Below, in pieces: positions 6,991-49,383 of a stretch of 64,000 nucleotides of DNA (positions within the stretch are counted from its first letter, which is position 1; each line of letters begins with the position of its first letter). Under the pieces are notes generated by a model that was given only the letters and a program-made list of their open reading frames with translations, had not been told where the DNA came from and did not search any database. Origin of the DNA: Tilletia caries. Taxonomy: Eukaryota; Basidiomycota; Exobasidiomycetes; Tilletiales; Tilletiaceae. The stretch is from contig JALUTQ010000001.1 in assembly GCA_032718865.1 (NCBI GenBank), positions 744,001 to 808,000 of the forward strand. The letters are read 5' to 3'. The position numbers and the translations under genes were made by a program.

Positions 6991-7189
6991 CCCTTGGTGA
7001 GCAAGTCTCCGGCCGGCGAGCTGGTAGTGGTGCGCTGCGTTGACCCTTCTCTTCCGCGTCCGCAGACGCCGACTTCCTCATCACGACGCTCTCCGACGAA
7101 CGACACACGTCCCGTCTCGTCCATAGATGCTCGCCTGGACGGAACAGAACACAACAGTTACGATGCCAGGTTCTCGCGAGCGGACGCTC

Positions 7190-8407
7190 AGCCATGCCGG
7201 CTCCGAGCTTGGGACAGTCCCACAGCACATCGAGGTGCAAAAGGGCTTTTTTGCTCTGCCCGGAGGACCGAAGGGAAGCTTCCCTCTTGCGCGCCTGTGC
7301 ATTCGCCTACGTTCTGCTGATGCTCTTAGTCTACGTTGTTCCCCTTTTCCAGGCCCTCCTAGCCTTCGTTGTGAGCATTTGCGCATACACAGTGCAGACA
7401 TATAGCTCGCACACGTTGTGCAGTCGACGCTGGGCTACAAGAAGCCATTTCTGTCCTTGTGAGTGGAGCAGACCTCTGTCTGCGTGTGCGAATTGCGACA
7501 GTGGATCTGCAACCCAGAGCTGACCCAGGGGATCTGCTTCTTCTTTTCCAGATGGCTGGGACACTCCCTCTTCTCGATCTTACTACCCTGCCACCTGCTC
7601 CTCCTCGTTTGGAGAGAGAAGTACCCTTTCGACCCCTGGTTCAGCCTGATAGCCAAGAATCTGGACTGGCAGCTGAGTTCTCGGTCCAAGGCGGAGGCAT
7701 ACCATAGCTTGTCCGATGGCATCGAAGCGAACGAGGGGAGTTCAGACCATTTCCCAGACGTACCGGGCTGACGGGCAGGATTCAGGAGAAAGTCGGCTTC
7801 GACGTGCTCAAATCAATACGAATCTGGTCGATTCTCACGCTCGGCATCACAATTCCGTCCTTAAGCTGGTGAGTGAGAGACGAGGGGCAGATCGGAAAGG
7901 TGACGCTTCTCTCTCTTCGAATTAGGTATTCGGCAGTGCTAATGTGAGCCCTCTGAATCATCAAACTGCTCTGAGCACAGCTAACAAGTAACACGTTTGA
8001 TCATTAAAGGACAACCATGGCGGACATCAAGGCGATATATCATACTTTCAGCGGTATGTGATCCATTCTCCCCAATTAATCCAAGCTTCAGCTACCTGAA
8101 GGCTGAAATATCTCTCTTCCCTCCTCCAGTTTTTGCACTTGTTTTCTCCGTAATCTTCCTAGGCGAGACATGGGAGCGTGTGAGTTACTCTCCAGTACCC
8201 ATGACCTACTCACAGTTGTGCCTGACCGACAGCCTACTTTACACAGCGCAAGGTGTTCTCCGTTGGCCTGGCGTCTGTAGGCGTCGCCATTGTAGCATAT
8301 GGAGGGGGTCTGCAACTCATTGCGAAGCAGACGAAGGGAAGCGGAGCTGTCCTGAGCTTCCGCGTAGCGATGATCGGTCTCGAACCCTCCTATGTATCTT
8401 TCTGTAA
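7190..8407 (+). CDS. Probable multi-exon membrane protein, structure unresolved
   Basis: Several hydrophobic coding segments lie on the plus strand with plausible introns between them. One (about 7290-7380) reads FAYVLLMLLVYVVPLFQALL; another (about 7520-7770) reads SLFSILLPCHLLLLVWREK then YPFDPWFSLIAKNLDW; a third pair (about 8130-8178 and 8247-8407) reads FALVFSVIFLGETWER, intron with GTGAGT and CACAG in phase 0, then VFSVGLASVGVAIVAYGGG and a stop. I could not join the first two blocks without breaking frame, so the start and internal exons are not fixed and the gene may be decayed. Family not recognised; at least four membrane spans. Confidence 0.35.
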
Positions 8408-11424: not shown

Positions 11425-12195
11425 AGACCTTTTCGACCCCGCCTCTTTCCCCCCGCCTCGACTCCAACTCCACGGCCCCATCGCCCGCATCACACCTTCA
11501 CCTTCCCACCAACACCATCTCCACGGAATGGGGAACACACCCCCAACCCTCTTTTACTTTTATCCCCCCCTTCCCTTCTTCTACTTCTGTATTACCCACA
11601 CTTCCATCACCCTTTCTTCCCCTTCTTGGATTTTACTTGCATGGACCAAGTAAATCAGAACAATAGACATTTGTTTCCTTACCTCGAAGTCACCTTTGCT
11701 CTGACATGCCTTTAACTAGCCTCATGACGCGAAGGGGGAGGCGGACCTTGGACCTTCTTTTTTCGTTTTGGGTGATGGATTGCCTTTGTCGGTTCGCGAG
11801 GAAGGGGGGAACAGAGATGGTGGGACGAAGAACAAGGGGAAAAGAAAAGAGAAAAGGTGCCGGGAACAAATGGACTGCTGAAACCGGAGAGCCGTTCGTG
11901 GATTCTTGGGGGAAGGATGGTTTTGTTGAAATCAAACGGTGAGCGGGATGGCGATGGCGATGGCGGTGTGGGTAGACAAAGGCTCGAGGTGATGCCCCAT
12001 GGTCGTGTTTGGCGGGTCGCGGAGCAGCACTAGTCGCCTTTTTCGATCCGGCTTTTATGCCCTCCGCCGAACGAGATGAGGTGGCCAAGGAGACAAGGGT
12101 CGGCCCCAATCACCATCGATCGACTGAACCCTCCCGACACGCGTCGTCGTCGTTCCTCCCTCCTCCCCCCCTCCCTCCTCTCCACATCCGCCACC
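11425..12195. other. Intergenic region between convergent genes
   Basis: 3' regions of the secreted protein gene (plus) and eIF4E (minus). No supported gene. The part at about 12080-12195, just behind the eIF4E stop, recurs behind both eIF4E pseudogenes at 38440-38528 and 43986-44083. Confidence 0.6.
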
Positions 12196-13322
12196 TCAGA
12201 GCATCATCTTCTTCCCCTTCTTCTTCTCACTCTCCCTGTGCGACTGGAACTCGACCTCGGTCGCGAACCCACTCGACCCCGCACCAGCTTTACCCTCCAA
12301 CTTATAACCCAACACATTCACCTTGAACTGCTTGCCGATGTCGATGAGCCTCGTGGCCAGCTTGGTCTCGGGGGCGTCGGCGTTGGGATTGGAGGCGTGG
12401 GCCTCGAGGTCGTCGTCCGCTCTGCGGGTCCAGATCACGATTCGGTAGAAGTTCGGACGGGCGGACATGATTACGCCGGTGACGAGTTCGTCTTCGAAAC
12501 TGCCTGCTTGGTTGGGGACGTTTTCTGGGTAGGAGGCTTCGAGAGTCTCTCCAATGGCTTGGAGCATCTGTGAAGCGGATTTGAAGCGTGTCAGATTTTT
12601 GTTGAGAAGGGAAAGAGAGAGCGATAGATACTGACAGTGTGGAGCCAGAGGGTGTTGATGGACTCTCTGGACTTGTCGCGGGGGAGCTGGATGGACCACT
12701 TGCCGCCGTTAGCATTGGCAGGATCCTCCCACGCAGGCCGGATGCCATCCTTAAAGAGGTAGTAGTTGGCCCGGGCGGGGAGATCCGAGGGCGGGATGAT
12801 GTTGTTGTAGAGACCCCAGAACTCCTCAACAGACTCAATGGTGACGACCTTGACCTGGTCCTCACCCCAGGCATCTTTACCGCCCGGTGCACCTTTACCC
12901 CCACCGTGACCGCCTCCTCCTCCGCCGCCCTTGGTGGACGGGTTGTCGAACCAGAGGGTCCAGGTGTTCCAGAGCGGGTGCTTGACGTTGAAGTGGTTCT
13001 GGTCCTGGAAAACAGTGGTGATGACGTCGAGATCGGCGTCGGTGCCGGTGGAAGCGAAGGAGGCGTTGGATTGGTCGACCGAGTTGTCTGTTATTGATGA
13101 GTCGGAGGGGGCGGAGGACATGCCAGCTGTTTGCTGTTGTGTTGATGACGAGGCGGCGGCATCACTGCCTGCGTCCTTCTGCTGCTGCTGTACCTTGGAA
13201 GCGACGGAAGCCATGGCTGCGTCTACTGCTGCGCGGGAGGAAGCGAGCGGGTGTGGGGGAAGCGAAGAGATGTTGTTGTTCTTGTTGGCGGCTGTGTTTG
13301 CTGACTGTCCGTCGCTGGACAT
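12196..13322 (-). CDS. Translation initiation factor eIF4E (mRNA cap-binding protein)
   Basis: Two exons: 13322-12636 and 12567-12196, intron 65 nt with GTCAGT donor and CACAG acceptor, about 352 aa. The N-terminal 110 residues are a low-complexity Ser/Ala/Gln tail; the cap-binding fold follows with HPLWNTWTLWFDNP, then VEEFWGLYNNI, the cap-stacking and Glu block RPAWEDPANANGGKW, and IVIWTRR after the intron. All the expected Trp residues are present, so this copy should be functional. A Gly run (GGGGGGGHGGG) is inserted after the first strand. eIF4E binds the 5' cap in the eIF4F complex in the cytoplasm. This is the intact source of two pseudogenes at 38.5-39.7 and 44.1-45.2 kb. The start is the first ATG before the low-complexity tail. 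Confidence 0.95.
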
Positions 13323-14266
13323 GGGAAGGAGACGAAGAGCTGATCGAGAGAGAGAGAGACTGTCGCTGTGTGCTGTACGAATGGGTGGTAGCAAGTAGTG
13401 GAAGCCTGCGCCTTTCCGTTGTTGGATGCTGGCTGAGCGCCTGAGTGAGGTGCAGAAAAAAAGAGACGCGGGCTCGAGCGCTGGAGAGGCGTGCTGTCTG
13501 GGGACGAGAAAAAGAAAGCTGCGACGGATTGTCGATAGCGGCGAGAGCGAGACTGGGTGCGACCGACGGAAACTGCGGACTGCGAGGCGAGTGTGTATCA
13601 GAGAGAGAGAGAAGCGAGAACAGAAGAGATCGACGTCGTCTTCCTCACGCAAATGGATGAGGCGAACCCATGCCAGGCTCACACAAAAGAAAATAATCAA
13701 TAAGCCACGGAAAAGTCACGTCACGTGGTATTGTTCTCAGTCACGTGCATCTGTCGCGCTTCCACCCACTCGAAGTCGGGAAGGAGTCCAACCGAACATC
13801 GTCCCGCCCGAGTAGTCAAGGAGAGGAGCACGCTTCCTCTGCCAGCCTGGGGCCTGGACACGCGCCTGCCCGCCCTCAGCGATGGCTTGAGCTGAGAGTG
13901 ACGATATGTATAGACACGCGACTGATCGTTCTGCCGCCTGTGTGTGGTTTCTGCGAGCGATGAGATGAGGTCTGGCGGTCAGATGAAGGTGACATGGAGC
14001 TGGATGCGATGCACGTACAGAACCACGACCTCCTGTTGCAGTCATCTGGAGTCAGGGAGGTATGTACTCCTTCTCAGCGCTCACCACGTACTAGCTACTA
14101 GTAGTGACTACTGACTGCGGGTATACCTAGCGAACAAGAGAGGAGGACAGGATCCAAACGGGTGAGGTTCTCTGTTGTTACCTTGTGTTGCGCGCTCGTA
14201 GACTTCGGGGCTGAATAGCATTTGCCTGGTTCCCTCATCTTTCATGTAGCCAAGCTGCCACCCCGA
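13323..14266. promoter_or_regulatory. Divergent promoter region of eIF4E and the CDF transporter
   Basis: 944 bp between two divergent starts, no supported gene. Contains GA/CT-rich tracts next to eIF4E and two E-boxes (separate entry). Confidence 0.5.
13722..13747. promoter_or_regulatory. Pair of CACGTG E-boxes spaced 20 bp
   Basis: cacgtg at 13722-13727 and 13742-13747, about 400 bp upstream of eIF4E. Fungal bHLH factors of the Cbf1/Pho4 type bind CACGTG; use here is inferred. Confidence 0.45.
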
Positions 14267-34676: not shown

Positions 34677-36662
34677 TCATGACCGGTTGAGGTCCGCCTC
34701 CCTGCTCTGGGTACCGTTTTCGCTCTTCACCTCGCGCGCGCGCACGCTTGGGACCTCCGGTTAATTTCGCGCGGCCCCCCCCCCCGGCTCCCTCTTCGGT
34801 CTACCTTCTAATCTCCTTCCCGTCCTTTCCCATGCTTCTCTCGGTCGCTCTTCCCTTTCTCCCTTCGCACGCACGCACCCCAGATCCCGACCCACACATA
34901 TACACAAACCAGAAACAAGAACAAGAAACCAGAACCAGCACCACGAAGGGCTTCCACCAACCAAACGAATCAATCTTTCCCACAGATACACTTTTCTCGC
35001 TTTCACCATTCATCCATCCATCCATCCATTCACATTCGTTTCGCTCTCCTTCAACGCCTCAACCAAGTGTCACTTCCCACTCATTTCTCGGCTCATCCCT
35101 TCTTCAAGTTGCCACAAGTTTCATCGAAATCCACACAAGTTAGAAAACAAAGATGCGACGCTCGATGTGAAACGGAGGCCGCTTCTGGGCTGCGTGAGTT
35201 ACATCACCATCACCCACCTCGCCAACCCGCCCGCTTCCCATCACGCTCGCAAGAAGGCCACAAGGCTGGCATCTACACTTACATTGCTGATCCTCTTGTT
35301 ATTGCAGAAGAGAGTTGGTTCGTATATGCGGCTCGGATTTGAGTATATGTAGGACGACCTGGGACAAGCGAGTGTAACCAGTGCATACATCCAAACCTGG
35401 CGCCGCTGACACTCTTTCCATCAGTTCCTTCACCCCTGTTCTTTCTCCCCCAGCGCCTTCTCTCTCTGCCCTTTGCCCTTTCCTCCTTTCCTAACCTCAC
35501 TTACAATTCTCTCTTTCCCATATCCCTACAGACAGACCCATGATTAAAAAGGAACGGCCGGTTCAAAGTCGACGCCCTCGCCACCAGTCGACTCGTAAAC
35601 ACACCAACCGACTGCCTTATCGAGCCTCGAGGGTCGTATGAACGAGAAACGGTTATCGGACAACTCCATTTCAATACCCTTGCAGATCTGGATCGTGTTC
35701 GTGTTCGAGTTTGGGAATGGATGCAGACTCAATTCTGCGCGGACATGCGGCATGCCCCAGTTGGCGTTGCGGAGGTGAGCGGCCATCGCTCATGTATAAA
35801 CGGCTCGACCGCCCTCCGAAGCCTTGACGCGCAAGGCAAGCAACCCTCGCTAAGTCCTCGTCGGCATACCCCTCCTTCCAAACTCCAACTGTGTACAAGC
35901 ACTAACAAACAAGCGCCCATCGTCTCGGCACCCCTCGGCTCCACCCTCGTCAGTCCTGCTTCGATCGGTTGCCGTCGGTCCGTTTCCGCCCAGCTGCGTT
36001 CCATGTCTGTTCAGTACGAATGAACGTGCTCGTCCTGTCATGCAAGAAATCGACCGCTGCGCTTTCCGAGGGATGATTTCTGTCAAGGATCTTCGATGCA
36101 CAAGGCGTTTGGCCAGGACTCCAGGTTCAGGCTCCAGATCGTCAATTCGAACGTCGTATCAGGCTCGGCAACCCCAAGAATCTTTGGAGGAGGTCATCAA
36201 CGGCTCAGGGAATCTGGGAACGATGGTCTGCAGTGAGTGAAGATGAAGGACATGTACATACGTTTCCCCGTGCTGACCGTTAACAGTATTCATTATCACA
36301 TTCAGCAGCTTTCGAGGACGTCATTGCCGTCATCTCCAACGACCGTGGTCGACCGACTCACCTTCGCACTCGTGCGCTATCCGATGCTTCAGGCCTTCAA
36401 GGACGGTCCAGTCAAAATTATGTGTGGTGCTTTGGGCGGCGGCGGCATCAGAGGCAAGTCTGCCGATCAAGACCTCATTGGCTCACGAAGAAGGCGAGGG
36501 ATACTACTTGGGGTTGGGGAGCAGCATGTTCATAGACAACGCTCACACCAGCCGGCAAGGATGTCTCGTTTCTCCGTATCTACAGCAAATCAGGCCCTCC
36601 AACATAACAATGGCAGTGAATCGGTCTTTTTCAGAGCGGACTGATCAATAGAAACATGTCTG
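34677..36662. other. Nearly 2 kb without a resolved gene; short conserved-looking frames
   Basis: 34750-35160 is pyrimidine-rich (leader-like). A minus-strand frame at 35786-35544 ends in IQICKGIEMELSDNRFSFI and a balanced-composition tail to PAVPF, looking like a last exon. A plus-strand frame near 36460-36651 contains EEGEGYYLGLGSSMFIDNA and LVSPYLQQIRPSNITMAV before a stop. Neither was recognised and I could not find convincing upstream exons; they may be relics of one or two genes. Confidence 0.35.
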
Positions 36663-37115
36663 TTGTGCACATCCGTCCCCGTCGTTGGCCCCGTCCACGT
36701 CGCCGTCCTCGTCCTCGTCCTCGTCCTCGCTGGCTGGACATCGGATACCAGATGTGGGACATGTCACACCTCACACGAAAAAGAGTTTGTTATGCGAAGG
36801 CCTTCAAGGGCCCCGCTTTGCGATGCGATTGCTGATGAGAGAGAGAAAGAGAAGGAGCCGAGACGCACAAGAGGACACCGGAGGAAAGTCGAGAGAGCAG
36901 GAGCGGAACGAAGCAAGGATGCGAGAACCGGGGACCGGGAACCAGAACGGAGAGATTACGAACGAATCCAGAAGCACCAGAGGATAGAGCAAAGTCGAGA
37001 GCGGGAGCGGAAAGGGAGGCCGGATCACAGAGAGGAAGGACGAAAGGATGCCGAGAGCCGAGGACTGGGAGAGAGATTGCGGTGCGATGTGAAGGGTTAT
37101 GATGGTGATGGTTGA
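36663..37115 (+). other. Arg/Glu-rich open frame, doubtful gene
   Basis: A 150-codon frame with many RER/RDR phrases in a purine-rich stretch. There is no motif and no obvious start context; probably a chance frame in repetitive DNA. Confidence 0.2.
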
Positions 37116-37189
37116 ACTGGTGATGGTTTGAACTGGTGATGGTTAAACTTGTGCGGGCGGAATGATGCAGGGATGCAGACTAAAGGCGG

Positions 37190-37700
37190 CGAGGCAAGTT
37201 GGGTAGCAAGGCGAAGGGGTTGGGCGAACAGAGAACGAGAAGAGGTCAGAAATCGAACAGTGACGCGTGGCATACCCGTGGTAGCAAAAAGGTACTCACG
37301 ATGAGAGCGCAGGAGAATCCATGGCGTTGGCGCTGGCGCTGGCCTATAGCGAGCGAGCCCCACCGCCACTGCGACTGCGACTGCAACTGGGGCAGAAGAC
37401 AGGGGCGGGATGGGCAAGAAACCTTCCTGTGAGGCAGGGACCATTCTCCTCCATGTGTCCCAACTTGGAACGGTAACGACACGGGCAATGGATGACGGGA
37501 GAAGGACGTGGCCGGAAGAGTGACGGAAACAGCGGCGAGGGCTGCAGGAACAGAGTGAGAAAAACGGCAAGACGGGCCGGGCGGTAAAGTGAACGGGTCG
37601 GACGACCGGGGGCAGGGCCGAGGCGAGAAAATCGGAGCGGGCGCCGGGATGTTCCCGTGGTAGACAAGAGGACATCTACGCTGAGAGAAAGGTGTCTTGC
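37190..37700 (-). repeat. Module M, copy 1
   Basis: Shares with 41160-41635 and 42120-42620 the phrases ggaccattctcctccatgtg, cgcaggagaatcc and a GTGAGTACC donor-like motif (minus strand). It is not found in the eIF4E or CDF source loci. Confidence 0.75.
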
Positions 37701-37734
37701 CCCGGTGCCCGTCTTCTCCACCAGGCGCAGTCAC

Positions 37735-38440
37735 AGTCGCGGCGGAGTTGAGGTAAGACGCCTGTGAGGTCCTTGGAGGTGGAGAGGGGGATGTTGGGGA
37801 GGAGGCCGAGGAGGGTGATGTTGGAGCCGCGGTCGCCGCGGCCTTTGAGGGCGGCGAGGAGGGCGTCGGCTTCGGCGGCGGAGCCGTGGTCGTGTCCGTG
37901 GGCTTGAAGATGAAGCTGTGAAGGTGTTGAGGGAGTGCGAATGCGCGTGCGAGCGGGAGTGGTCGTGGGAATGGTCGCGGTGGTCATGCGTCGTGACACC
38001 ATTGGTGTCCTTGGCAACTGCTGCCGAACCAGGCTTGCGCTGTGAGAGTTCTGGCTGCGACGACATGGTGGGAGAGATTGTTTCGCTGTTTTTCTTGATG
38101 ACCAGAAATGATGATTGTCGATAGAAGCCTGCCTTGAGAAAGCAAAGAGGGCCGAACTGGAAGGCTGTCTGATCCTGATGGCTGTCGACTTGGAGGCGTA
38201 GTGTTGGGGCTGGTGGAAGGAGAAGGTGGATGCGCTGCTCTGTGGAGGGGCGAGAAGGAGCGACCGAGGGGAGCTGATGGGTTGTTGGAGAACTCCTGAT
38301 CTTCTTCGTCTTCTGGTCTCTGCCAGCGTACGAGACGGATTGTGGGCGGGTCTCGTCTGGAGGCAGGGAGCGGTGCCGGGGGTGCTGGGTTGAGGAGGGT
38401 GGGAGCTGTTGACCCATCCTTGGCCACGAGGCAAGGATCG
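37735..38440 (-). pseudogene. CDF-transporter fragment (a)
   Basis: Matches the 5' third of the CDF gene, from the TLLNPAPPAPLP region through RLVRWQRPEDEE, the STFSFHQPQHYASKSTAIR block, the His-rich loop and ALLAALKGRGDRGSNITLLG. Reading frame is broken several times and the segment ends in the first membrane span. It is fused at its 5' side to the eIF4E 3' flank. Confidence 0.85.
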
Positions 38441-38528
38441 GCCCCAAATCACCATCGAACGCGTCGCCGACGTTCGTCCGCTCCCCCCTTATGTAACCCC
38501 CTCCTGTACGAGTACCCTAGCCGCCACC

Positions 38529-39606
38529 TCAGAGCATCATTTTCTTCCCCTTCTTCTTCTCATTCTTCCTGTGTGACTGGAACTCGACCTCGGTCGCGAA
38601 CCCACTCGACCCCGCACCAGCTTTACCCTCCAACTTATAACCCAACACATTCACCTTGAACTGCTTGCCGATGTCAATGAGCCTCGCGGCCAGCTTGGTC
38701 TCGGGGGCGTCGGCGTTGGGATTGGAGGCGTGGGCCTCGAGGTCGTCGTCCGCGCTGCGGGTCCAGATCACGATTCGGTAGAAGTTCGGACGGGCGGACG
38801 TGATTACGCCGGTGACGAGTCTCGTCTTCGAAGCTGCCTGCTTGCTTGGGGACATTTTCTGGATAGCAGGCTTCGAGGGTCTCTCCGATGGCTTGGAGCA
38901 TCTGTGAGAAGTGGAGTAAAGAGCGTGTCAGTTGAGAAGGAAGAAAGAGAGAGAAAGAGGGAGAGACTAACAGTGTGGAGCCAGAGGGTGTTGATCGACT
39001 CTCTGGACTTGTCGCGGGGGGCTGGATGGACCGCTTTCCGCCGTTGGCATTGGCGGGATCCTCCCATGCGGGCCAGATGCCATCCTTGACGAGGTAGTAG
39101 TTGGCCCGGGCGGGGAGATCCGAGGGCGGGATGTTGTTGTTGTAGAGACCCCAGAACTCCTCAACAGACTCAATTGTGACGACCTTGACCTGGTCCTCAC
39201 CCCAGGCATCTTTACCGCCCGGTGCACCTTTACCCCCACCGTGACCGCCTCCTCCTCCGCCGCCCTTGGTGGACGGGTTGTCGAACCAGAGGGTCCAGGT
39301 GTTCCAGAGCGGGCGCTTCACGTTGAAGTGGTTCTGGTCCTGGAAGACGGTGGTGATGACGTCGAGATCGGCGTCGGTGCAGGTGGAAGCGAAGGAGGCG
39401 TTGGATTGGTCGGCCGAGTTGTCTGTTATTGATGAATCGGAGGGGGCGGAGGACATGCCAGCTGTTTGCTGTTGTGTGGATGATGAGGCAGCGGCATCGC
39501 TGCACGCGTCCTTCTGCTGCTGCTGTACCTTGGAGGCGACGAAGGCCATGGCTGCGTCTACTGCTGCGCGGAAGGATGCGAGCGGGTGCGGGGGAAAGCG
39601 AAGAGA

Positions 39607-39643
<37 letters not shown>

Positions 39644-39679
39644 GGCGGCTGTGTTTGCTGACTGTCCGTCGCTGGACAT
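38529..39679 (-). pseudogene. eIF4E pseudogene, copy 1
   Basis: Near-complete copy of eIF4E including the intron (about 38904-38970), start MSSDGQ at 39679 and the 3' end KKGKKMML. Two frame errors relative to the intact gene: loss of one base in the stretch coding LPRDKSRES (reads PPATSPES), and one extra base near 38820 (TRHRRN instead of LVTGVI). The structural Trp of GGKW is also changed to Arg. The Asn/Gln tract is expanded by (GTT)n. Not functional as an eIF4E. Confidence 0.9.
39606..39651. repeat. (GTT)n microsatellite, about 12-15 units
   Basis: In eIF4E pseudogene copy 1; the intact gene has only three interrupted units at the same place and copy 2 has five more than this one. Confidence 0.85.
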
Positions 39680-39964
39680 GGGAAGGAGACGAAGAGCTGA
39701 TCGAGAGAGAGAGAACTGTCGCTGTGTGCTGTACGATGGGTGGTAGCAAGTATTGGAGCCTGCGCTCTCCCGTTGTTGGATGCTGGCTGAGTGAGGTAAA
39801 GAAAAAAGAGACGCGGGCTCGAGCGCTGGAGAGGCGTGCTGTCTGGGGACGAGCAAAAGAAAGCCGCGACAGGATGTCGGATGGCTGTCGACTTGGAGGC
39901 GTAGTGTTGAGGCTGGTGGAAAGAGAAGGTGGATGAGCTGCTATTTGAAGGGGGGGGGGGGAAG

Positions 39965-40090
39965 GCTAAGAATAGAGCCTGGAGAGCGCTTCGATTGTTA
40001 TTCTTGTGCCGGTATCGGTCAAGTTTTCGATCATCCGTGCGTCGCTCCAACCCTGCGGCCAGATCATGTCGCGGACATCTTCGGTAAGCT
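39965..40090 (-). other. Block X copy 1, unknown conserved peptide-coding segment
   Basis: Minus-strand frame with ELTEDVRDMIWPQGWSDARM and a tail IEALSRLYS. The same segment at 45535-45665 reads ELTEDVRDIIWPEGWSDARM, so most differences are conservative. It is not from eIF4E or CDF. Origin unknown. Confidence 0.55.
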
Positions 40091-40149
40091 CATAGAAATG
40101 CAGGCACGATGAGTCCCAGCGCGAGGTGGGCGATGGAGGGAAGGTAGAC

Positions 40150-40985
40150 GCCTGTGAAGCCCTTGGACGTGGAGCGGGAGGATGTTGGCGAGGAGGCCGA
40201 GGACGGTGATGTTGGAACCGCGGTGGCCGCGGCCTTTGAGGGCGGCGAGGAGGGCGTTGTCTTCGGCTTCTGCGAAGGCGTTGAGGGAGTGCGAGTGGGA
40301 GTGGTCGTGGGAATGGTCGCGGTGGTCATGCGTCGTGACACCATTGGTGTCCTTGGCAACTGCTGCCGAATCAGGCTTGCGCTATGTGAGTTCTGGCTGC
40401 GACGACATGGTGGGAGTAATCGTTCGGCTGTTGTTGTTCTTGATGACAGGAGAGGGTGGATTGTCGATAGAAGCCTGCCTTGAGACAGCGGTTGCAGTCG
40501 TGGCCGGATAGAAAGCAAAGAGGGCCGAACCGGAAGGCTGTCTGATCCTGATGGCTGTCGACTTGGAGGCGTAGTGTTGGGGCTGGTGGAAGGAGAAGGT
40601 GGATGCGCTGCTCTGTGGAGGGGCGAGAAGGAGCGACCGAGGGGAGCTGACCGGGTCTTGGTCGAGAGATCTTCTTCGTCTTCTGGTCTCTGCCAGCGTA
40701 CGAGACGGATTGTGGGCGGGCCTCGTCTTGAGGCAGGGAGCGGTGCCGGGGGTGCTGGGTTGAGGAGGGTGGGAGCTGTTGGCCTATCCTATTTGGTGTT
40801 GTTGTTGTTGTTCTTGGTGATGGATCTGCCTCGGACGAGGGCTGCTCAGAGGACAGAGGAAGAAGAGGACGGGGATGAGGGCGAGAGACGAAGGGCGTAC
40901 GTGGAACGAGCGAGGAGGGCACTCATTCGGGATGGCAGCTTGGCTACATGAAAGATGAGGGAACCAGGCAAATGCCATTCAGCCC
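40150..40985 (-). pseudogene. CDF-transporter fragment (b), includes its 5' flank
   Basis: Starts in the source gene's 5' flank (GSLIFHVAKLPSRM, matching 14228-14270), covers the start region LLARSTYALRLSPSSPSSSS, the Pro-rich part, the STFSFHQPQH block, the His loop and ALKGRGHRGSNITVLG, then ends in span 1 with GFTGVYL. Frames are broken. Confidence 0.85.
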
Positions 40986-41044
40986 CGAAGTCCACGAGCG
41001 CGTGTGAATGCGAGTGGGAGTGCGGGTGCTCATGGTCGTGGGAA

Positions 41045-41155
41045 AGGTCGTGGCCGAGGAAGGTGATGTTGGAGCCACGATCGCTGCGGCGAGGAGGGCG
41101 GCGAGAAGGGCGTCGGCGTCGGCGTCGGCGTCGGCTTCGGCGGTGGAGCCGAATT
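41045..41155 (-). pseudogene. CDF fragment (c), His-loop/ALLAAL piece
   Basis: Carries FAAHSHAKGHEFGSTAEAD followed by an expanded (GTCGGC)n run and DRGSNITFLG, then a His-rich DHEHPHSHSHSH tail joined to fragment (b). Confidence 0.75.
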
Positions 41156-41159
41156 CGTG

Positions 41160-41635
41160 ACCCTTGGCATGGGAATGGGCTGCGAAGGCGTTGGGCGAAC
41201 GGAGAAGAGAAGAGGTGAGAAATCGAACAGTGGCGTGTGGGCACACCCATGGTAGGAAAAAGGTACTCACCATGAGAGCGCAGGAGAATCCACGGCATTG
41301 GCGCTGGCGAATAGCGAGCGAGCCCCACCGCCACTGCGACTACAACTGGGGCAGAAGACAGGGGCGGGATGGGCAAGAAACCTTCTTGTGAGGCAGGGAC
41401 CATTCTCCTCCATGTGTCCCTACTTGGAATGGCAACGACACGGGCAATGGATGACGGGAGAAGGGAGTAGCCGGAACAGTGAGAGAAAGGGCGAGACGGG
41501 CGGGGCGGGGCGGTAAGGCGAACGGGTCGGACGACCGGGGGCAGGGCCGAGGCGAGAAAATCGGAGCGGGCGTGAGGATGTTCCCGTGGTAGACAAGAGG
41601 ACATCTACGCTGAGAGAAAGGTGTCTTGCCCCCCC
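41160..41635 (-). repeat. Module M, copy 2
   Basis: About 90% like 37190-37700 by eye, including ccattctcctccatgtgtcc and gagagcgcaggagaatcc; ends at a C run near 41631. Confidence 0.75.
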
Positions 41636-41639
41636 CCCC

Positions 41640-41985
41640 GTGCCCGTCTTCTCCACCAGGCGCAGTCACAGTCGCGGCGGAGTTGAGGTAGACGCCTGTG
41701 AGGTCCTTGGAGGTGGAGAGGGGGATGTTGGCGAGGAGGCCGAGGAGTGTGATGTTGAAACCGCGGTGGCCGCGGCCTTTGAGGGCGGCGAGAAGGGCGT
41801 CGGCGTCGGCGTCGGCTTCGGCAGTGGAGCCGAATTCGTGACCCTTGGCATGGGAATGGACTGCGAAGGGGTTGAGCAAGTGCAAGTGCGAGCGGGTGTG
41901 CGGCTGCGAATGCAAATGCTCGTGTGAACGGTCGTAGTGGTCGTACGTCGTTACACCGTTTGTCTCCTTGTTGACTGCTGCCGAA
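41640..41985 (-). pseudogene. CDF fragment (d), His-loop to span 1
   Basis: Covers the NKETNGVTTYDHYDRSHEH part, FAVHSHAKGHEFGSTAEAD, ALLAALKGRGHRGFNITLLG and ANIPLSTSKDLTGVYLNSA. Same layout as fragment (e). Confidence 0.8.
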
Positions 41986-41999
41986 TTCCCCTGGGCATG

Positions 42000-42120
42000 G
42001 GAATGAGCTGTGACCGAGGAGGGTGATTTGGAGCCGCGATCGCTGCGGTCTTTGAGCGCGGCGAGGAAGACGTCGGCTTCGGCTCCAGCGGCGGAGACGT
42101 GATCCTGAGCATGGAAATGG
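42000..42120 (-). pseudogene. CDF fragment, short and diverged
   Basis: Only the AEADVFLAALKDRSDRGSKSP-like piece is left, between module M (42120) and fragment (d). Confidence 0.6.
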
Positions 42121-42620
42121 CCTGCGAAGGGGTTGGGCGAACGGATTGGGCGAACGGAGAAGAAAAGAGGTGAGAAATCGAACAGTGGCGTGTGGGCATA
42201 CCCATGGTAGGAAAAAGGTACTCACGATTAGAGCGCGGGATAAACCATGGCGTTGGCGCTGGCGCTGGCGAATAGCGAGCGTCCGCCCCTGTTTCTGCCT
42301 CAGTTGCAGTCGCAGTGGCGGTGGGGCTCGCTCGTTATTCGCCAGCGCCAGCACTAATGGGCAAGAAACCTTCCTGTGAGGCAGGGTCCATTCTCCTCCA
42401 TGTGTCCCAGCTTGGAATGGTGACGCACGGGCAGTGGATGACGGGAGATGGAAGTAGCCGGAAGAGTGACGGCAGCGGCGAGGGCTGCAGAAAGAGAGTG
42501 AGAGAAACGGCAAGACGGGCCGGGCGGTAAGGTGAACGGGCGACCGGGGGCAGAGCCGAGGCGAGAAAATCGAAGCGGGCGGGGATGGACCCATGGTACT
42601 TAGACAAGAGGACATCCACG
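42120..42620 (-). repeat. Module M, copy 3 (left arm of the palindrome)
   Basis: Contains accttcctgtgaggcagggt, catgtgtcccagcttggaat and gtggatgacgggag as in copies 1 and 2, with an added inverted piece ctgcgactgcaactgaggc near 42295-42320. Confidence 0.75.
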
Positions 42621-43210
42621 ATGAGAGAACGAGAGAATCGGCGGGGAGGGCGGATGGGCTATGTTGAAAGGACGAACGGGCTTATAAATGAAAGAACCGA
42701 CGAGCGACGGATGAGAAGGGCGCTCGAAGGGGTGCCTGGCGGAAGGCGGAGTCCTAGGGGGAAAAGAAGGGTCAAAACAGCTCCGGTATCAAAAGCAGAC
42801 TCAATGAATGTGACTTCCCTGGTACTCCTGGTTCCCCCCTGGCACCCCTTCGGGCGCCCCGTTCTCATCCTTGTCGGTTCTTTCTTCGGCCGTCGTCATT
42901 CAACATCACCATCGCTGCCGTCCCCACTGATCCTCCGCTCACCATCGTGGATACCTCATGCCTACCATGGGCATCCCCACACACAAACTCCGACTTCCCA
43001 CCTCGTCCCTTTCCCCGATCGCCCTTATCGTCCACCCCCCTACCCAGACCGTCCCATCGTCCGTCCCTCTCCCTCCCTCCCTACAACCCTCTCCGCTACT
43101 CTCGTCCCTCTTCCGTCTACATCCTTCTCCCGTCGTCCATCGCCCGCTGCCACCGTTCCGAGTTAGGACACATGAAGGAGCATGATCCCGTCTCAGAGGT
43201 AGGTGTCTTG
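42360..43210. repeat. Imperfect palindrome of about 0.85 kb
   Basis: The left arm (about 42360-42765) and right arm (about 42810-43210) are inverted copies. Matching landmarks: ccatgg at 42591 and 42965; catgtgtcc at 42399 and its complement ggacacatg at 43166; gaaggggtgcc at 42726 and its complement ggcaccccttc at 42841. All give one centre near 42785. Arms are roughly 75-80% alike by eye. The arms contain module M (left arm minus sense, right arm plus sense). Confidence 0.8.
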
Positions 43211-43249
43211 TCCACCCCGTCCCCGCCATCTCCATCAGGCGCAGTCACA

Positions 43250-43985
43250 GTCGCAGTGAGGTTGCAGTAGACGCCTGCGAGGCCCTCAGAGGTGGAGAGG
43301 GGGATGTTGGCGAGGAGGCCGAGGAGGGTGATGTTGGAGCAGCGGTCGCCGCGGCCTTTGAGGGCGGCGAGAAGAGCGTCGGCGTCGGCTTCGGCAGTGG
43401 AGCCAAATTCGTGACCCTTGGCATGGAATGGGCTGCGAAGGGGTTGAGCAAGTGCGAGTGCGAGCGGGTGTGCGGCTGCGAATGCAAATGCTCGTGTGAA
43501 CGGTCGTAGTGGTCGTACGTCGTGACACCGTTCGTCTCCTTGTTGACTGCTGCCGAACCAGGCTTGCGCTGTGAGAGTTCTGGCTGCGACAACATGGTGG
43601 GAGAGATTGTTTCGCTGTCTTTCTTGATGACAAGAAATGATGATTGTCGATAGAAGACTGCCTTGAGACAGCGGTTGCAGTCGTGGCCGGATAGAAAGCA
43701 AAGAGGGCCGAACTGGAAGGCTGTCTGATCCTGATGGCTGTCGACTTGGAGGCGTAGTGTTGGGGCTGGTGGAAGGAGAAGGTGGATGCGCTGCTCTGTG
43801 GAGGGGCGAGAAGGAGCGACCGAGGGGAGCTGATGGGTTGTTGGAGAACTCCTGATCTTCTTCGTCTTCTGGTCTCTGCCAGCGTACGAGACGGATTGTG
43901 GGCGGGTCTCGTCTGGAGGCAGGGAGCGGTGCCGGGGGTGCTGGGTTGAGGAGGGTGGGAGCTGTTGACCCATCCTTGGCCACGA
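43250..43985 (-). pseudogene. CDF-transporter fragment (e)
   Basis: Same layout as fragment (a), nearly identical from 43560 to 43985, but keeps 36 bp around tgagacagcggttgcagtcg that (a) lacks. Covers TLLNPAPPAPLP to ANIPLSTSEGLAGVYCN. Confidence 0.85.
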
Positions 43986-44083
43986 GGCAAGGATCGGCCC
44001 CAAATCACCATCGAACGCGTCGCCGACGTTCGTCCGCTCCCCCTTATGTAACCCCCTCCTGTACGAGTACCCTAGCCGCCACC

Positions 44084-45161
44084 TCAGAGCATCATTTTCT
44101 TCCCCTTCTTCTTCTCATTCTTCCTGTGTGACTGGAACTCGACCTCGGTCGCGAACCCACTCGACCCCGCACCAGCTTTACCCTCCAACTTATAACCCAA
44201 CACATTCACCTTGAACTGCTTGCCGATGTCAATGAGCCTCGCGGCCAGCTTGGTCTCGGGGGCGTCGGCGTTGGGATTGGAGGCGTGGGCCTCGAGGTCG
44301 TCGTCCGCGCTGCGGGTCCAGATCACGATTCGGTAGAAGTTCGGACGGGCGGACGTGATTACGCCGGTGACGAGTCTCGTCTTCGAAGCTGCCTGCTTGC
44401 TTGGGGACATTTTCTGGATAGCAGGCTTCGAGGGTCTCTCCGATGGCTTGGAGCATCTGTGAGAAGTGGAGTAAAGAGCGTGTCAGTTGAGAAGGAAGAA
44501 AGAGAGAGAAAGAGGGAGAGACTAACAGTGTGGAGCCAGAGGGTGTTGATCGACTCTCTGGACTTGTCGCGGGGGGCTGGATGGACCGCTTTCCGCCGTT
44601 GGCATTGGCGGGATCCTCCCATGCGGGCCAGATGCCATCCTTGACGAGGTAGTAGTTGGCCCGGGCGGGGAGATCCGAGGGCGGGATGTTGTTGTTGTAG
44701 AGACCCCAGAACTCCTCAACAGACTCAATTGTGACGACCTTGACCTGGTCCTCACCCCAGGCATCTTTACCGCCCGGTGCACCTTTACCCCCACCGTGAC
44801 CGCCTCCTCCTCCGCCGCCCTTGGTGGACGGGTTGTCGAACCAGAGGGTCCAGGTGTTCCAGAGCGGGCGCTTCACGTTGAAGTGGTTCTGGTCCTGGAA
44901 GACGGTGGTGATGACGTCGAGATCGGCGTCGGTGCAGGTGGAAGCGAAGGAGGCGTTGGATTGGTCGGCCGAGTTGTCTGTTATTGATGAATCGGAGGGG
45001 GCGGAGGACATGCCAGCTGTTTGCTGTTGTGTGGATGATGAGGCAGCGGCATCGCTGCACGCGTCCTTCTGCTGCTGCTGTACCTTGGAGGCGACGAAGG
45101 CCATGGCTGCGTCTACTGCTGCGCGGAAGGATGCGAGCGGGTGCGGGGGAAAGCGAAGAGA

Positions 45162-45213
<52 letters not shown>

Positions 45214-45249
45214 GGCGGCTGTGTTTGCTGACTGTCCGTCGCTGGACAT
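44084..45249 (-). pseudogene. eIF4E pseudogene, copy 2
   Basis: Carries the same two frameshifts, the GGKW to GGKR change and the retained intron as copy 1; the two are almost identical over 1.15 kb. The main difference is a longer (GTT)n tract. The open frame fused to the CDF piece upstream is a chance read-through. Confidence 0.9.
45162..45214. repeat. (GTT)n microsatellite, about 17-18 units
   Basis: Same position as the tract at 39606 in copy 1, five units longer. Confidence 0.85.
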
Positions 45250-45534
45250 GGGAAGGAGACGAAGAGCTGATCGAGAGAGAGAGAACTGTCGCTGTGTGCT
45301 GTACGATGGGTGGTAGCAAGTATTGGAGCCTGCGCTCTCCCGTTGTTGGATGCTGGCTGAGTGAGGTAAAGAAAAAAGAGACGCGGGCTCGAGCGCTGGA
45401 GAGGCGTGCTGTCTGGGGACGAGCAAAAGAAAGCCGCGACAGGGTGTCGGATGGCTGTCGACTTGGAGGCGTAGTGTTGAGGCTGGTGGAAGGAGAAGGT
45501 GGATGAGCTGCTATTTGAAGGGGGGGGGGGAAAC

Positions 45535-45665
45535 CAAGAATAGAGCCTGGAGAGCGCTTCGATTGATGTTCTTGGGCCGGTATCGGTCCAGTCTTCGATC
45601 ATCCGTGCGTCGCTCCAACCCTCCGGCCAGATTATGTCGCGGACATCTTCGGTAAGCTCATAGGA
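45535..45665 (-). other. Block X copy 2
   Basis: Frame with WGLSWLPSYELTEDVRDIIW and PEGWSDARMIEDWTDTGP, then IEALSRLYSWF before a G tract; see 39965-40090. It overlaps the stop of the coiled-coil gene in another frame. Confidence 0.5.
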
Positions 45666-48300
45666 GGGCAGCCACGATAAGCCCCAGCGCGAGGAGGGCG
45701 ACGAAGTTGAGGTGGACGCCTGTGAAGCCCTTGGACGTGGAGCAGGAGGATGTGGGCGAGAAGGCAGAAGAGGGTGATGTTGGAACTGCGGTGGCCGCGG
45801 CCTTTGAGGGCGGCGAGAAGGGCGTCGGCTTCGGCGGTGGAGCCGTGGTCCTGACCCTGGGCACAATCGACTGTGAAGACGTTGACCAAGCGCGAGTGGT
45901 TGCGAGAAAGGTCGTGGCCAACGAGGGTGATGTCGGAGGCGCGATCGCCGCGGCCTTTGAGGGCGGTGAGGAGGGCGTGGGCTTCCGCTTCGATGGCGCA
46001 GAAGTGATCGTGCCCCTGGGCATGTAAATGGGCTGCGACGGTGTTGGGGGAGTGCGAATACCAGTGTGTGTACCGATGGTTGTGAGAATGGTCCTGGTGG
46101 TCATGGATCGAAGCGAGCGGGCGGACGTTGGACTTTGGAAGACGAAAATACCGAGCAAAATACCGATTAGCAGGGCGCAGATTCCCGTCACGAAGCACTT
46201 GTGGTAGCGTGCACGTCGGTGGTGTGCAGGCTTATCCTGACCCGGGACGCCGCGGAGAATGTCCACCGTCCCACACCAGGAGAACGTGCTCGGAAGGACA
46301 GGAGCGTCCCTCACATCCTCGTCGATGCCGTGCTCCAGGACGCTTGGGTGTTCAGCGTCCTTGAAGAGGTCGATAAGAGGACTCGACGACGTCTTGTCTT
46401 TGCGACAAGGACCGCGCTGTAGAAGAAGGGGGGAATGCAAGGGCACAAACCATCGTTCAGTACTCAAGGTTTGGGAGCATGCATGGGCAAGGGCGAATGA
46501 AAGGAAACACTCACCTTCTTCGCGACCGTGGTAGCAACCTCTTCATCTGACCGATCCATCATGTCCTGCGAGACATCACCAGCATCAGGACGTAGCAGCC
46601 TGTCCCGCATCTCCGCTTCCGCTCTCTTCCGCGCAGCAGCAGCAAGCTGACTGCCGACCGACTTCCCATGGCTCGCCCATCCGTCGGTGGCCCCCAACGA
46701 GCGCGAAGAACGAGTTCCCAATGCGAGTCGATCCGTCTGTTGAGCCTCCGCCAGCTCGCTCTCCTTAGCTGCGAGTTCGGCCTTGAGCCGGGCCACCTCG
46801 CTCCCGAGCTCATAGGTTTGGCTCTTCGCAGTCCGAAGCTCGGAGTCGGTCGCCGAAAGCTTGGCCTTCTCCTCTTGGAGCTGCGTCTTGAGCTTGTTGG
46901 AGAGGTGGTCTTCTACTTCCAAGCAAGACATCGTCCCCCTAAGTTCGTGGTTGTCTCGGTTTAGGGCCTTGGTTTCCTTGTGGAGGGCGGCTACCTTCTC
47001 TGCAAATGAGCAACGAGAAAGAGAGAGAAGAGTCAGAAGAGGAAAGCTAGGGAGGTGGGACATGGTCCGGATTTGCTGATGCTACTCACCGTTCTGTCTC
47101 TCCAAGAGCCTCTTCAATACCAGAACCCGTCTGTTCGCCTCAGCCTTCTTCTCCTCGAGCTCGTTCGCCCCCGTCTCCCACGACTCCACATCGCGAGTGA
47201 GCCGCTCGTTCTCGGCTTGTAGAGACTGGTTGTCCCTTTGAAGCTTTTGGATCTCCTTGTCCTTCTTCTCCCCGAGCTTGATCTCCTTACCACATCTTCC
47301 CCAGCCCTCATCCGCATCCTTCCTCACCCTGTCGCAGGTCTGTCGCAACGACATGATCGAGGCCTGATGCCCTTTGATCTCCTGCCGGTGCTCCTTCGCC
47401 TGGGTTTCGAGGCCTGCCTTGAGCTCCTCTATGGTGTCGTCACGCATCTGGAGGGCGTTCTCAAGCTCGAGGATGCGGCTGTTGAAGGTAGCGTCGGAGC
47501 CGAAAACGAGAGTCGTGCCAGTGGACGCACTCGCGTTGGTGATGTCTGCTGAACCGAAAGACACCGAGGCGGAGCTGGTGCGTCCCCTCGAGGGCCGTCC
47601 AGGTGGGCGTGGCACCTGGCGCAAGCGCCGGACGAGGCGGGTGTCCGAGGTGGCGGCACCGACATTGCCGGACATCCAGGAGCTGGGCAGGGGCGAAGAA
47701 ATCACCCGGCTCTGGAGCTCCCGAATCCGCTCGTTAGCCTCGGACAGCTGCTCCTCGGCCCTCTCCTTGTCGTCCTCCGCCTCGTCCTTCATTCCCTGGA
47801 GCGTTGAGAATGAGCCAATGAGCTCGGCGAAGAGCTCTGTGATTGGAAAGATTGAGAATCTGCGTTCAGCGGTGCAGTTTTGACCCCCTATGTATGCGGA
47901 TATGCAGGAAAAGAGTCTACTTACGTCGTCCAAACTCGACGTTCTGCATAATGTTCTCGAGCTCGCCTGGCTGGAGTCGTGAGGCCTGGTGCTTGCTGCC
48001 TCCTGCTGCACTGATGGCCTCCGGAGCGCCAGCCAACTCCCGGAGTCGGTCGAGGCTGATCGCTCCGGGGCCGTGATGGCTGCTCGAGGAGCCATCCCTT
48101 GTCCGGCGGCGCTTGGACCCGACGTGGTAGTCGTCGTGGCAGTCCCTGGTGGAGGAGGTGAAGGAGGAGGAGGAGGCGGAGGGAGCGAGCGAGTAGGGCT
48201 CGTATATCACGTTTCTGAGCTCGGCGAGCTTCTGAAGGAACTCGCAATGGTTGGCGGCCTGGTTGACCTGCTGGAGCTGCTGGAACTGTCTGGTGTCCAT
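45658..48300 (-). CDS. Coiled-coil protein with membrane span; C-terminus made of repeat DNA
   Basis: Four exons join in frame: 48300-47925, 47836-47090, 46999-46515 and 46416-45658; about 788 aa. Exon 1 starts MDTRQFQQLQQVNQAANHCE and has a basic KRRRTRDG patch. Exons 2-3 are long coiled coil (LQRDNQSLQAENERLTRDVE, SEVARLKAELAAKESELAEA). Exon 4 adds CRKDKTSSSPLIDLFKDAEH and one strong membrane span (about residues 608-628, CFVTGICALLIGILLGIFVF). The last 160 residues are out-of-frame products of CDF fragment (f), ending in a hydrophobic LLALGLIVAALL. Splice sites are good (GTAAGT/CACAG, GTGAGT/TGCAG, GTGAGT/CTACAG). Could be a nuclear-envelope or Golgi golgin-like tether (inferred only). The native end of the gene may have been replaced by the mosaic. 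Confidence 0.6.
45690..46100 (-). pseudogene. CDF fragment (f), two tandem His-loop pieces
   Basis: In the CDF frame: HDHQDHSHNHRYTHWYSHS, AHLHAQGHDHFCAIEAEAHA, ALLTALKGRGDRASDITLVG, then a second copy AQGQDHGSTAEADALLAALK and GRGHRSSNITLFCLLAHILL. It lies inside exon 4 of the coiled-coil gene but is read there in another frame. Confidence 0.75.
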
Positions 48301-48437
48301 CGGGAAGCTGTTCTTGATGTTGTTGTTGGAAAGGAAGGAAGTGTGGGAATGTGAGAGAGTGAGAGAGTGAGAGAGTGATGGAGGGATAGAGTGATGGAGT
48401 GTGAGAGGCGAATTGCTGTTGCTGTTGCTGTTGCTGT

Positions 48438-48497
<60 letters not shown>

Positions 48498-49383
48498 AGG
48501 GTGCAGGAAAAAGATTTGAGAAGGTCTGGCGGTCTGGGGAGCCTTGTCTTGTACCTTGACGAGGAGAATAGAGAATGACGAGCGTGTTCGGTCTGGCTGC
48601 GCTGGCCACAGTATACCTTCGTTGCCTATTGAGCCCTTGAGGGCCGGAGTTCCCATGGGTCCACACTGCTGAGGTGCGACGGTGCCAACAGAAGGAGGGA
48701 ATGAAGGACCAAGGCCTTGAACAGCGCCTCTGCTCCATAGACGATTAACGAGCAATGAGCATCGAATCGTACCGGCCTGCCAGCAAAAATCATGCGTGCC
48801 TGCCTGATTATCTGAAAAAAAAAGAGAAGGTCAGCGGAAGAGAGGCAAGAAGGAAGGAAGGAAAAAGGCAGGAGAACGGTGAGCAGTCAGCGCAAGTGCA
48901 TAATAATCGCTGGCCAAGCTTCGCCTGCATCACACCTTGGGAATGCAAACTCCACGAACGCGAGAACGGCTGCCACTTGCCAGGCCTTGAACGCCAGCGA
49001 GGCCACTGGGAAGCATCCTGGATTCCATCCGTGTCGATGCTGCGAGCGTGGAATGTGGATCGGTGGCCAGGATGGATGCGAGCGTGAGTGCAAACGGCAT
49101 GTTGGGCGAGCGAGATGTTCGAACACCAGACGCCGGCGGCAGTGAGAGGCAGGCCCGATGTGAAGTGCTCGGAGCGTTCTCGCACTTTTTTGTCCTCGCA
49201 ACACCCTGTCGCCAGGCCAACCTTCACCTCGCCAAATGAATGCTTCCCGCTTCCCGACTCCCATAGGAAAGCACGCGCTCTTCGGTATCGACCTGCCTCT
49301 GCTGATCCCCCGCCGAACGCTGCCGTCGCGCCTTTCCCTCGAGACGCGCGCGCATACGCCGTGCGGAACGGAGCGTGCCCAAC
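48301..49383. promoter_or_regulatory. Divergent intergenic region, coiled-coil gene / RPC34
   Basis: Besides the hexanucleotide repeat it has a gagagagtgag-type tract (48350-48400). No supported gene. Confidence 0.45.
48413..48497. repeat. (TTGCTG)n hexanucleotide repeat
   Basis: About 14 units with one ttgttgctgctg interruption, 115-200 bp upstream of the coiled-coil gene start, so in its promoter or 5' leader. Confidence 0.9.

What the first reader, a model, noticed from the sequence alone, without database searches (positions are those of the whole stretch)
37190..46100. Mosaic locus assembled from broken pieces of eIF4E and a CDF transporter
About 9 kb consists almost only of reordered fragments of two neighbouring genes located 25-30 kb upstream (eIF4E 12196-13322, CDF 14267-16209), joined by private sequence (module M, block X). 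All pieces share one orientation (the palindrome's right arm excepted) although the two source genes are divergent, so at least one was inverted. At 38440 and 43985 the CDF 5' part is fused directly to the eIF4E 3' flank, a junction not present in the source. This resembles gene-fragment capture (Helitron- or Pack-type) or a break-induced replication hot spot rather than simple tandem duplication.
Basis: partly seen in the sequence, partly recalled or inferred. Interest (0 to 1): 0.88.

Follow-up and report, generated by a model that had tools for sequence, protein, structure and literature searches.

The report
Gene-fragment patchwork remaking a gene's tail
In a wheat-bunt fungus, pieces of a translation-factor gene and a metal-transporter gene were copied into the end of an unrelated fungal gene a few tens of kilobases away and reshuffled there, and that gene now appears to use some of the pieces as its own new protein tail.

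Summary
The patchwork is real. Of 8,921 bp (37190-46110), 3,417 match a 934-bp stretch at the CDF gene's 5' end, 2,871 match eIF4E plus flanks, 2,155 match only DNA from related loci elsewhere in the genome, and 478 match nothing. Module M and block X are not private: they belong to the 3' side of a coiled-coil/transmembrane gene family seen so far only in Tilletia (capped search). A paralogous C5 locus has the same CDF|M' junction but no eIF4E. The host is most likely T. caries TC1_MSG. Assembly error is unlikely: pieces differ from their sources by 3-27%, and Tilletia database proteins share a junction (P0123) and the frameshifts (P0006).

Best reading: CDF and eIF4E DNA was captured behind the C1 family gene and duplicated locally; a 1.7-kb tract was homogenised recently. 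The C1 gene lost its old C-terminus and stop in a 238-bp deletion; its frame now runs through CDF DNA in a non-CDF frame. The eIF4E copies share three frameshifts, but Ka/Ks 0.17 suggests earlier constraint. Helitrons are common in this genome, yet no convincing Helitron, TIR or retrocopy signature was found here. Ordinary in kind, unusual in detail.

The parts
12082..13534 (-). Source eIF4E with flanks (ATG 13322, stop 12196, one intron)
   Evidence: Pfam IF4E; translation identical to Tilletia laevis P0001
14191..15124 (+). Part of the source CDF gene that was copied (76 bp before ATG 14267, plus N-terminal coding part)
   Evidence: Pfam Cation_efflux
45658..48300 (-). Coiled-coil/TM gene (database protein P0123); last exon 46419-45658, transmembrane stretch about 46197-46138
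   Evidence: P0123 aligns at 99.2% (residues 1-126), 93.0% (126-536, introns inside) and 99.6% (536-788)
45688..46105 (-). Two CDF-derived pieces (14867-15050 at 46105-45916 and 14950-15124 at 45863-45688) now forming most of the new tail, read in a non-CDF frame
45513..45687 (-). Unmatched block U, copy 1
   Evidence: only its own second copy found in the genome, 91%
45450..45512 (-). CDF 14582-14644 piece, upstream of eIF4E copy c2
43978..45449 (-). eIF4E copy c2 (pseudogene, three frameshifts)
43261..43977 (-). CDF 14399-15106 fused to eIF4E 3' flank
42954..43258 (+). M': inverted arm of the palindrome
42630..42953 (.). X: palindrome centre, also present on C5
42136..42629 (-). Module M copy (dispersed family module)
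41674..42134 (-). Two CDF pieces (14927-15048 and 14826-15114)
41182..41618 (-). Module M copy, palindrome centre missing
41006..41192 (-). Small CDF pieces (14875-14922, 14927-15050)
40120..41002 (-). CDF 14191-15124
39966..40119 (-). Unmatched block U, copy 2
39880..39965 (-). CDF 14565-14644 piece, upstream of eIF4E copy c1
38422..39879 (-). eIF4E copy c1 (pseudogene, same three frameshifts)
37739..38421 (-). CDF 14399-15114 fused to eIF4E 3' flank
35262..37690 (-). Module M plus the 3' module shared with the C5 paralogue
   Evidence: L037 5086-6712 (83%) and 6815-7452 (75%)
38179..39863 (.). Tract identical to 43735-45433 apart from two length differences: inferred recent gene conversion

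Best explanation
This is a gene-fragment capture site at the 3' end of a coiled-coil/transmembrane gene known so far only from Tilletia. Shown by sequence: DNA matching 934 bp at the 5' end of a CDF transporter gene and the whole eIF4E gene lies behind this gene; the CDF|linker|M' junction is shared with a paralogous locus on C5, where no eIF4E was found; a block of about 2.6 kb exists twice; a 1.7-kb tract inside it is identical in the two copies apart from two length differences while DNA beyond it is clearly less alike; relative to paralogues on C4 and C5 the C1 gene lacks 238 bp with the old C-terminus and stop, so its frame continues through old 3' flank into CDF DNA. Inferred: the order (CDF first, eIF4E later); DNA-level capture from 22-34 kb away by break repair with template switching; transfer of the CDF junction between C1 and C5 by ectopic exchange through shared family DNA; recent gene conversion; use of the new tail as protein; and that the eIF4E copy was for a time under purifying selection before becoming a pseudogene.
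For: Coverage and controls. Piece map and orientation. Outside C1 the CDF stretch matched 155 bp on C5, two adjoining pieces on C7, and six short matches (35-49 bp, in the His-rich repeat) on five contigs (13 candidates scored, a lower bound). Shared CDF|linker junction in c1, the 41.6-kb copy, c2 and C5. Colinear C5 paralogue with no eIF4E match in its 10 kb; eIF4E DNA or domain elsewhere only as a different paralogue on C13. Deletion of the old C-terminus seen against both C4 and C5. P0123, a T. laevis/T. caries database protein, contains the TM-CDF tail and matches the window's last exon at 99.6%. P0121 (T. controversa) is annotated with the C5 CDF tail. P0006 (T. controversa) matches the copies at 98.4% over residues 56-237 (79-86% over 1-53, 96% over 228-301) but the source at 72% over 1-258 and 79% over 250-301. 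The intron is retained in both eIF4E copies. Ks: eIF4E copy 0.13, CDF pieces 0.19-0.25.
Against: Template switching rests on short overlaps judged by eye, not compared with chance. Ka/Ks 0.17 rests on 47 changes in one comparison; a diverged donor or conversion by the source would look similar, and the strongly diverged intron and 3' flank (61-63%) fit none of these well. The new frame is already open in the source CDF DNA over part of its length, so an open frame is weak evidence of function. P0123 and P0121 are predicted proteins. Five percent of the locus (mainly block U) has no known origin. The 1.7-kb identity could be partly an assembly or polishing effect. The Ks ordering compares a constrained gene with faster-evolving sequence.
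Confidence: 0.7

Rival explanations
1. A Helitron (rolling-circle transposon) captured the gene fragments, and M or the 3' module is its terminal part.
For: Helitron_like_N gives 60 matches (fragments included) in this genome; M-like DNA is dispersed over several contigs.
Against: None of the 60 Helitron places listed lies closer than about 20 kb to an M-like place (the nearest pair is on C19). The 3' parts of two copies of one resident Helitron show no match to the window or to L037-L043; the best 30-base match of that end is 19/30 in the locus against 18/30 in a control stretch. Only one Helitron family was tested.
Confidence: 0.08
2. A Pack-type element with terminal inverted repeats, or a foldback element built on the M'-X-M palindrome, carried the pieces.
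For: There is a large imperfect palindrome, and 22 inverted pairs of 16 nt or more lie in 36600-46700, more than in shuffles (24 diagonals of 14/16 quality against a mean of 3.7 in 20 shuffles), mostly from M and M'. One 16-nt pair has arms at the eIF4E/CDF junction and at the edge of a CDF piece.
Against: No pair bounds the whole block; that one 16-nt pair is of a quality expected by chance several times. The 12-base flanks of the eIF4E segment share no 3-base word directly, only an inverted CCATC/GATGG. At C5 the palindrome sits between CDF and the 3' module, not as a free element. Other M loci seem to have M without M' (whose output was cut).
Confidence: 0.05
3. The region is an assembly artefact (chimeric or collapsed contig).
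For: The two eIF4E copies are identical over 1.7 kb apart from two length differences, which polishing or collapse can produce.
Against: Pieces differ from the source by 3-27%, each differently. Database proteins from T. laevis/T. caries (P0123) and T. controversa (P0006) carry the TM-CDF junction and the frameshifts respectively. If the assembly is TC1_MSG it was built from 317x Nanopore reads (passage of PMC10684912). The eIF4E/CDF junctions themselves were not seen in another assembly.
Confidence: 0.03
4. The same family locus, but the eIF4E copy came from a diverged relative (introgression) rather than from the neighbouring gene.
For: Low Ka/Ks with Ks 0.13 is what an orthologue from a related species would show; intron and 3' flank are only about 61-63% alike.
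Against: CDF and eIF4E are neighbours in this genome, so a local source is simpler. No related-species DNA was available to test it.
Confidence: 0.14

Closest known systems
Chimeric genes born by partial (segmental or tandem) duplication and exon shuffling, e.g. Drosophila yakuba (PMC5460883; start of abstract in search listing only)
   Same: Pieces of other genes duplicated next to a host gene give it a new end.
   Different: Here the host gene belongs to a family with a shared 3' module, the captured DNA is read out of its own frame in C1 and (as annotated) in its own frame in C5, and one captured gene was a complete eIF4E.
Pack-TIR / Pack-MULE duplications (PMC8277862; start of abstract in search listing only)
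   Same: Gene fragments from elsewhere placed together at a new site.
   Different: No inverted repeat bounding the block and no direct repeat flanking the eIF4E segment found here.
Helitron gene-fragment capture (PMC4683698; start of abstract in search listing only; capture habit recalled)
   Same: Fragments of several genes joined together; the host genome contains many Helitrons.
   Different: No Helitron end of the one family tested, and no Rep/Hel domain in the frames scanned at the locus.
Recombination at DNA secondary structures in Plasmodium var families (PMC3936766; start of abstract in search listing only)
   Same: A gene family in which ectopic exchange makes chimeras.
   Different: No evidence here of expression switching or of a variable surface protein.

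Membership tests
Chimeric gene by DNA-level fragment capture | Part of a gene's coding end is homologous to a different gene, and relatives of the host gene lack it | tested here: met
   Tail 46105-45688 matches CDF; the C4 paralogue (P0122, L052) ends without it
Chimeric gene by DNA-level fragment capture | The chimeric reading frame is transcribed and translated | not testable with these tools
   Only predicted database proteins P0123 and P0121
Processed retrocopy | Introns removed | tested here: not met
   Both eIF4E copies keep the intron region
Helitron | Rep/Hel domain in or near the element | tested here: not met
   None in the 23 of 88 window ORFs scanned; nearest genome match to any M-like place about 20 kb away
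Helitron | Family-specific 3' end bounding the block | tested here: inconclusive
   Compared with the end of one resident family only; chance-level match
Pack-type TIR element | Terminal inverted repeats bounding the captured block | tested here: not met
   None of 22 pairs of 16 nt or more bounds the whole block; one 16-nt pair at inner junctions is at chance level
Pack-type TIR element | Target-site duplication around the captured block | tested here: inconclusive
   Only the 12-base flanks of the eIF4E segment were looked at; no shared direct word
Template-switching (MMBIR/FoSTeS) rearrangement | Several pieces joined in changed order and orientation with short-overlap junctions | tested here: inconclusive
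   Changed order and orientation shown; overlaps of about 1-4 bp judged by eye, no chance model
Gene conversion between duplicates | Sharp rise in identity inside an older duplication | tested here: met
   No mismatch over 39863-38179; next 100 columns upstream 97%, the three before that 86-91%; downstream 93 then 68-71 matches per 100 columns; polishing artefact not excluded

The most novel reading that the evidence does not exclude
The shared 3' module (M and the DNA behind it) acts as a homology anchor that lets members of this Tilletia membrane-protein family swap whatever lies between the transmembrane exon and M; the CDF-derived pieces at C1 form a small store of silent tail cassettes, so the locus is a tail-diversifying device fed by host housekeeping genes.
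Probability: 0.07. Interest if true: 0.75.

Novelty: new member of a known kind. Interest (0 to 1): 0.42.

Why it matters
It is a well-resolved example of how a lineage-specific fungal gene gets a new protein end from unrelated housekeeping DNA: donors, paralogues without the insert, loss of the old stop codon and later homogenisation can all be seen in one genome. Two paralogues (C1 and C5) carry the same captured DNA in two predicted reading frames, which makes the birth of new coding sequence directly testable with RNA data from the three wheat-bunt species. It also weakens a tempting transposon story in a genome rich in Helitrons.

Tried and rejected
Module M as private sequence: rejected. 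Block U (45513-45687) as the displaced old last exon, because of an IWPE-W motif: the similarity to C5 is only a 10-residue match (E 1.9), and C4/C5 show that the old tail was lost at another place, so I treat it as unexplained. Helitron, Pack-TIR and retrocopy: see rivals. The 110-bp piece 11737-11846 beside eIF4E as a Helitron end: the alignment ends are fuzzy and I saw no terminal signature. Mosaic ORFs as functional CDF: each of the three longer CDF pieces tested (c1, c2, c3) has 2-4 indels not divisible by three, Ka/Ks 0.39-0.44; the 155-bp C5 piece has no indel, Ka/Ks 0.38. The first coiled-coil protein search used one 228-aa exon and found nothing; full-length relatives were outside its length limits. 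A scan of viral contigs with a GH5-family protein gave nothing and was uninformative. No tRNA (ARAGORN set for the bacterial code), no Rfam family in 35000-49000. An FHA domain that I thought I saw in L041 by eye was not found by Pfam.
Full report
What was checked. Reading along the minus strand from 46105 down to 37210 the order is: CDF 14867-15050; CDF 14950-15124; an unmatched block U; CDF 14582-14644; eIF4E 13534-12082; CDF 14399-15106; M'-X-M palindrome; CDF 14927-15048; CDF 14826-15114; M; small CDF pieces; CDF 14191-15124; U again; CDF 14565-14644; eIF4E 13534-12082; CDF 14399-15114; M. Of 8,921 bases, 3,417 match CDF, 2,871 eIF4E, 2,155 only DNA of related loci (L037-L042), 478 nothing; 20 Markov-1 shuffles and an equal-length control region gave no hit. 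Of CDF only 14191-15124 was used. In the rest of the genome that stretch matched 155 bp on C5, two adjoining pieces on C7 (59 and 95 bp), and six matches of 35-49 bp on five contigs that fall in the His-rich repeat (13 candidates scored, a lower bound).

Host. The source eIF4E protein is identical to a Tilletia laevis entry, the top of 937 hits, of which 120 are listed. So the host is most likely that assembly; this is inferred.

What it sits on. At 48300-45658 on the minus strand lies a coiled-coil gene with a transmembrane stretch; its predicted protein is P0123 (T. laevis, UniRef T. caries; 788 aa; last exon 99.6% over 253 residues). An earlier search with a single exon found none. Relatives of that exon occur on C1, C4, C5 and C7 (6 matches, 19 candidates scored). 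The C5 locus (L037, 10 kb) is colinear with window 48300-35262 but has only about 155 bp of CDF and no eIF4E match. M and the DNA behind it match further places on C5, C7, C10, C19 and C39. Two of these lie within a few kb of a gene with a SUN-type domain (L040) or a RING-type domain (L041).

How the gene got its tail. The C4 and C5 relatives end, after the transmembrane stretch, in a conserved tail and stop. An alignment of C1, C4 and C5 shows that C1 lacks 238 bases with that tail and stop (L037 3942-4179), and that its frame continues through about 32 bases of the old 3' flank into CDF DNA. The new tail uses two CDF pieces in a frame other than the CDF one. That frame is open in the source CDF DNA over part of the stretch, so openness is not evidence of selection. 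In T. controversa the C5 gene is annotated with an extra spliced exon that reads CDF DNA in the CDF frame (P0121). Both are predictions.

History. The CDF|linker|M' junction is shared by c1, the 41.6-kb copy, c2 and C5, so it most likely arose once. The c1 and 41.6-kb copies both lack the palindrome centre (L037 4531-5085), so they share a later deletion. Ks against the source is 0.19-0.25 for the four CDF pieces tested and 0.13 for eIF4E; with no eIF4E at C5 this suggests CDF first, eIF4E later. The eIF4E copies share three frameshifts, and a T. controversa protein carries the same copy (98.4% over residues 56-237, 79-86% over 1-53, 96% over 228-301; against the source 72% and 79%). Copy c1 versus source has 29 synonymous and 18 non-synonymous changes, Ka/Ks 0.17. 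If the copy had been neutral from birth, with changes split evenly between branches and strong constraint on the source (assumptions), about 51 non-synonymous changes would be expected (Poisson P 8e-8). Constraint for most of its age, or a diverged donor, are the two readings. The intron (61%) and 3' flank (63%) are much more diverged than the exons (95-96%) and the upstream 212 bases (92%), which neither reading explains fully.

Recent change. The two long units show no mismatch from 39863 to 38179, apart from a 15-column CAA-repeat difference and one extra base. The next 100 columns upstream are 97% alike and the three before that 86-91%; downstream the windows hold 93 and then 68-71 matches per 100 columns. 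At a uniform 10% divergence no mismatch in 1,685 bases is out of the question (log10 P about -77). Recent gene conversion is the simplest reading; a polishing effect cannot be excluded.

Mechanism. The intron is kept, so no processed retrocopy. The 12-base flanks of the eIF4E segment share no direct 3-base word, only an inverted CCATC/GATGG. Of 22 inverted pairs of 16 nt or more in 36600-46700, none bounds the whole block. One 16-nt pair (14 of 16) has arms at the eIF4E/CDF junction and at a CDF edge; pairs of that quality turn up 0-7 times per shuffle (mean 3.7 in 20 shuffles), against 24 diagonals in the real region, mostly M against M'. Helitrons are common in this genome (60 matches), none closer than about 20 kb to an M-like place; one family's 3' part does not match the window or L037-L043, and its 30-base end scores 19/30 in the locus against 18/30 in a control stretch. 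Changed order, one inverted partner and 1-4 bp overlaps judged by eye fit break repair with template switching, which remains an inference.

Literature. PMC9172201 and PMC10684912 were seen as search listings and passages. The other papers were seen in search listings with the start of their abstracts. A search for Tilletia with 'gene duplication' and 'chimeric gene' gave 0 papers, and for Tilletia with Helitron 2 papers; in what I saw of these, nothing describes this locus.

Verdict. A real patchwork and probably no artefact; an instance of a known kind (chimeric gene by fragment capture, local duplication and conversion) with unusually legible steps.

Noticed in passing
window 11737-11846: A 110-bp stretch between eIF4E and the next gene matches two places on C5 (79-81%), both behind the C5 family modules; the source neighbourhood and the C5 loci thus share a second small piece.
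   Followed up: partly
L043 4733-4894 (C7:666233-666386): Two CDF pieces joined in changed order, about 0.6 kb from DNA resembling the upstream region of the coiled-coil/TM gene (48616-49046).
   Followed up: partly
L040 7946-9982; L041 5037-5981: M-like modules on C10 and C7 lie near a SUN-type (Sad1_UNC) gene and a RING-type gene respectively; a possible dispersed gene cluster with a common 3' module.
   Followed up: partly
G000, 60 matches on many contigs: Helitron_like_N domains are abundant, several in long open frames.
   Followed up: no
L070 about 2518-2963 (C34): One Helitron copy is interrupted within its terminal hairpin by a ~445-bp insert with inverted ends, compared with its near-identical copy on C3 (L071).
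   Followed up: no
window 39607-39644 and 45162-45214: CAA repeats in the eIF4E copies differ in length between c1 and c2 and from the T. controversa protein P0006, a possible marker of copies or species.
   Followed up: no
window 45513-45687 and 39966-40119: Block U, found nowhere else in the genome, origin unknown.
   Followed up: partly
window 43970-43985, 38414-38429 and 45912-45927: A 16-nt inverted pair sits at the eIF4E/CDF junctions and at a CDF piece edge; chance-level in quality, but oddly placed.
   Followed up: partly
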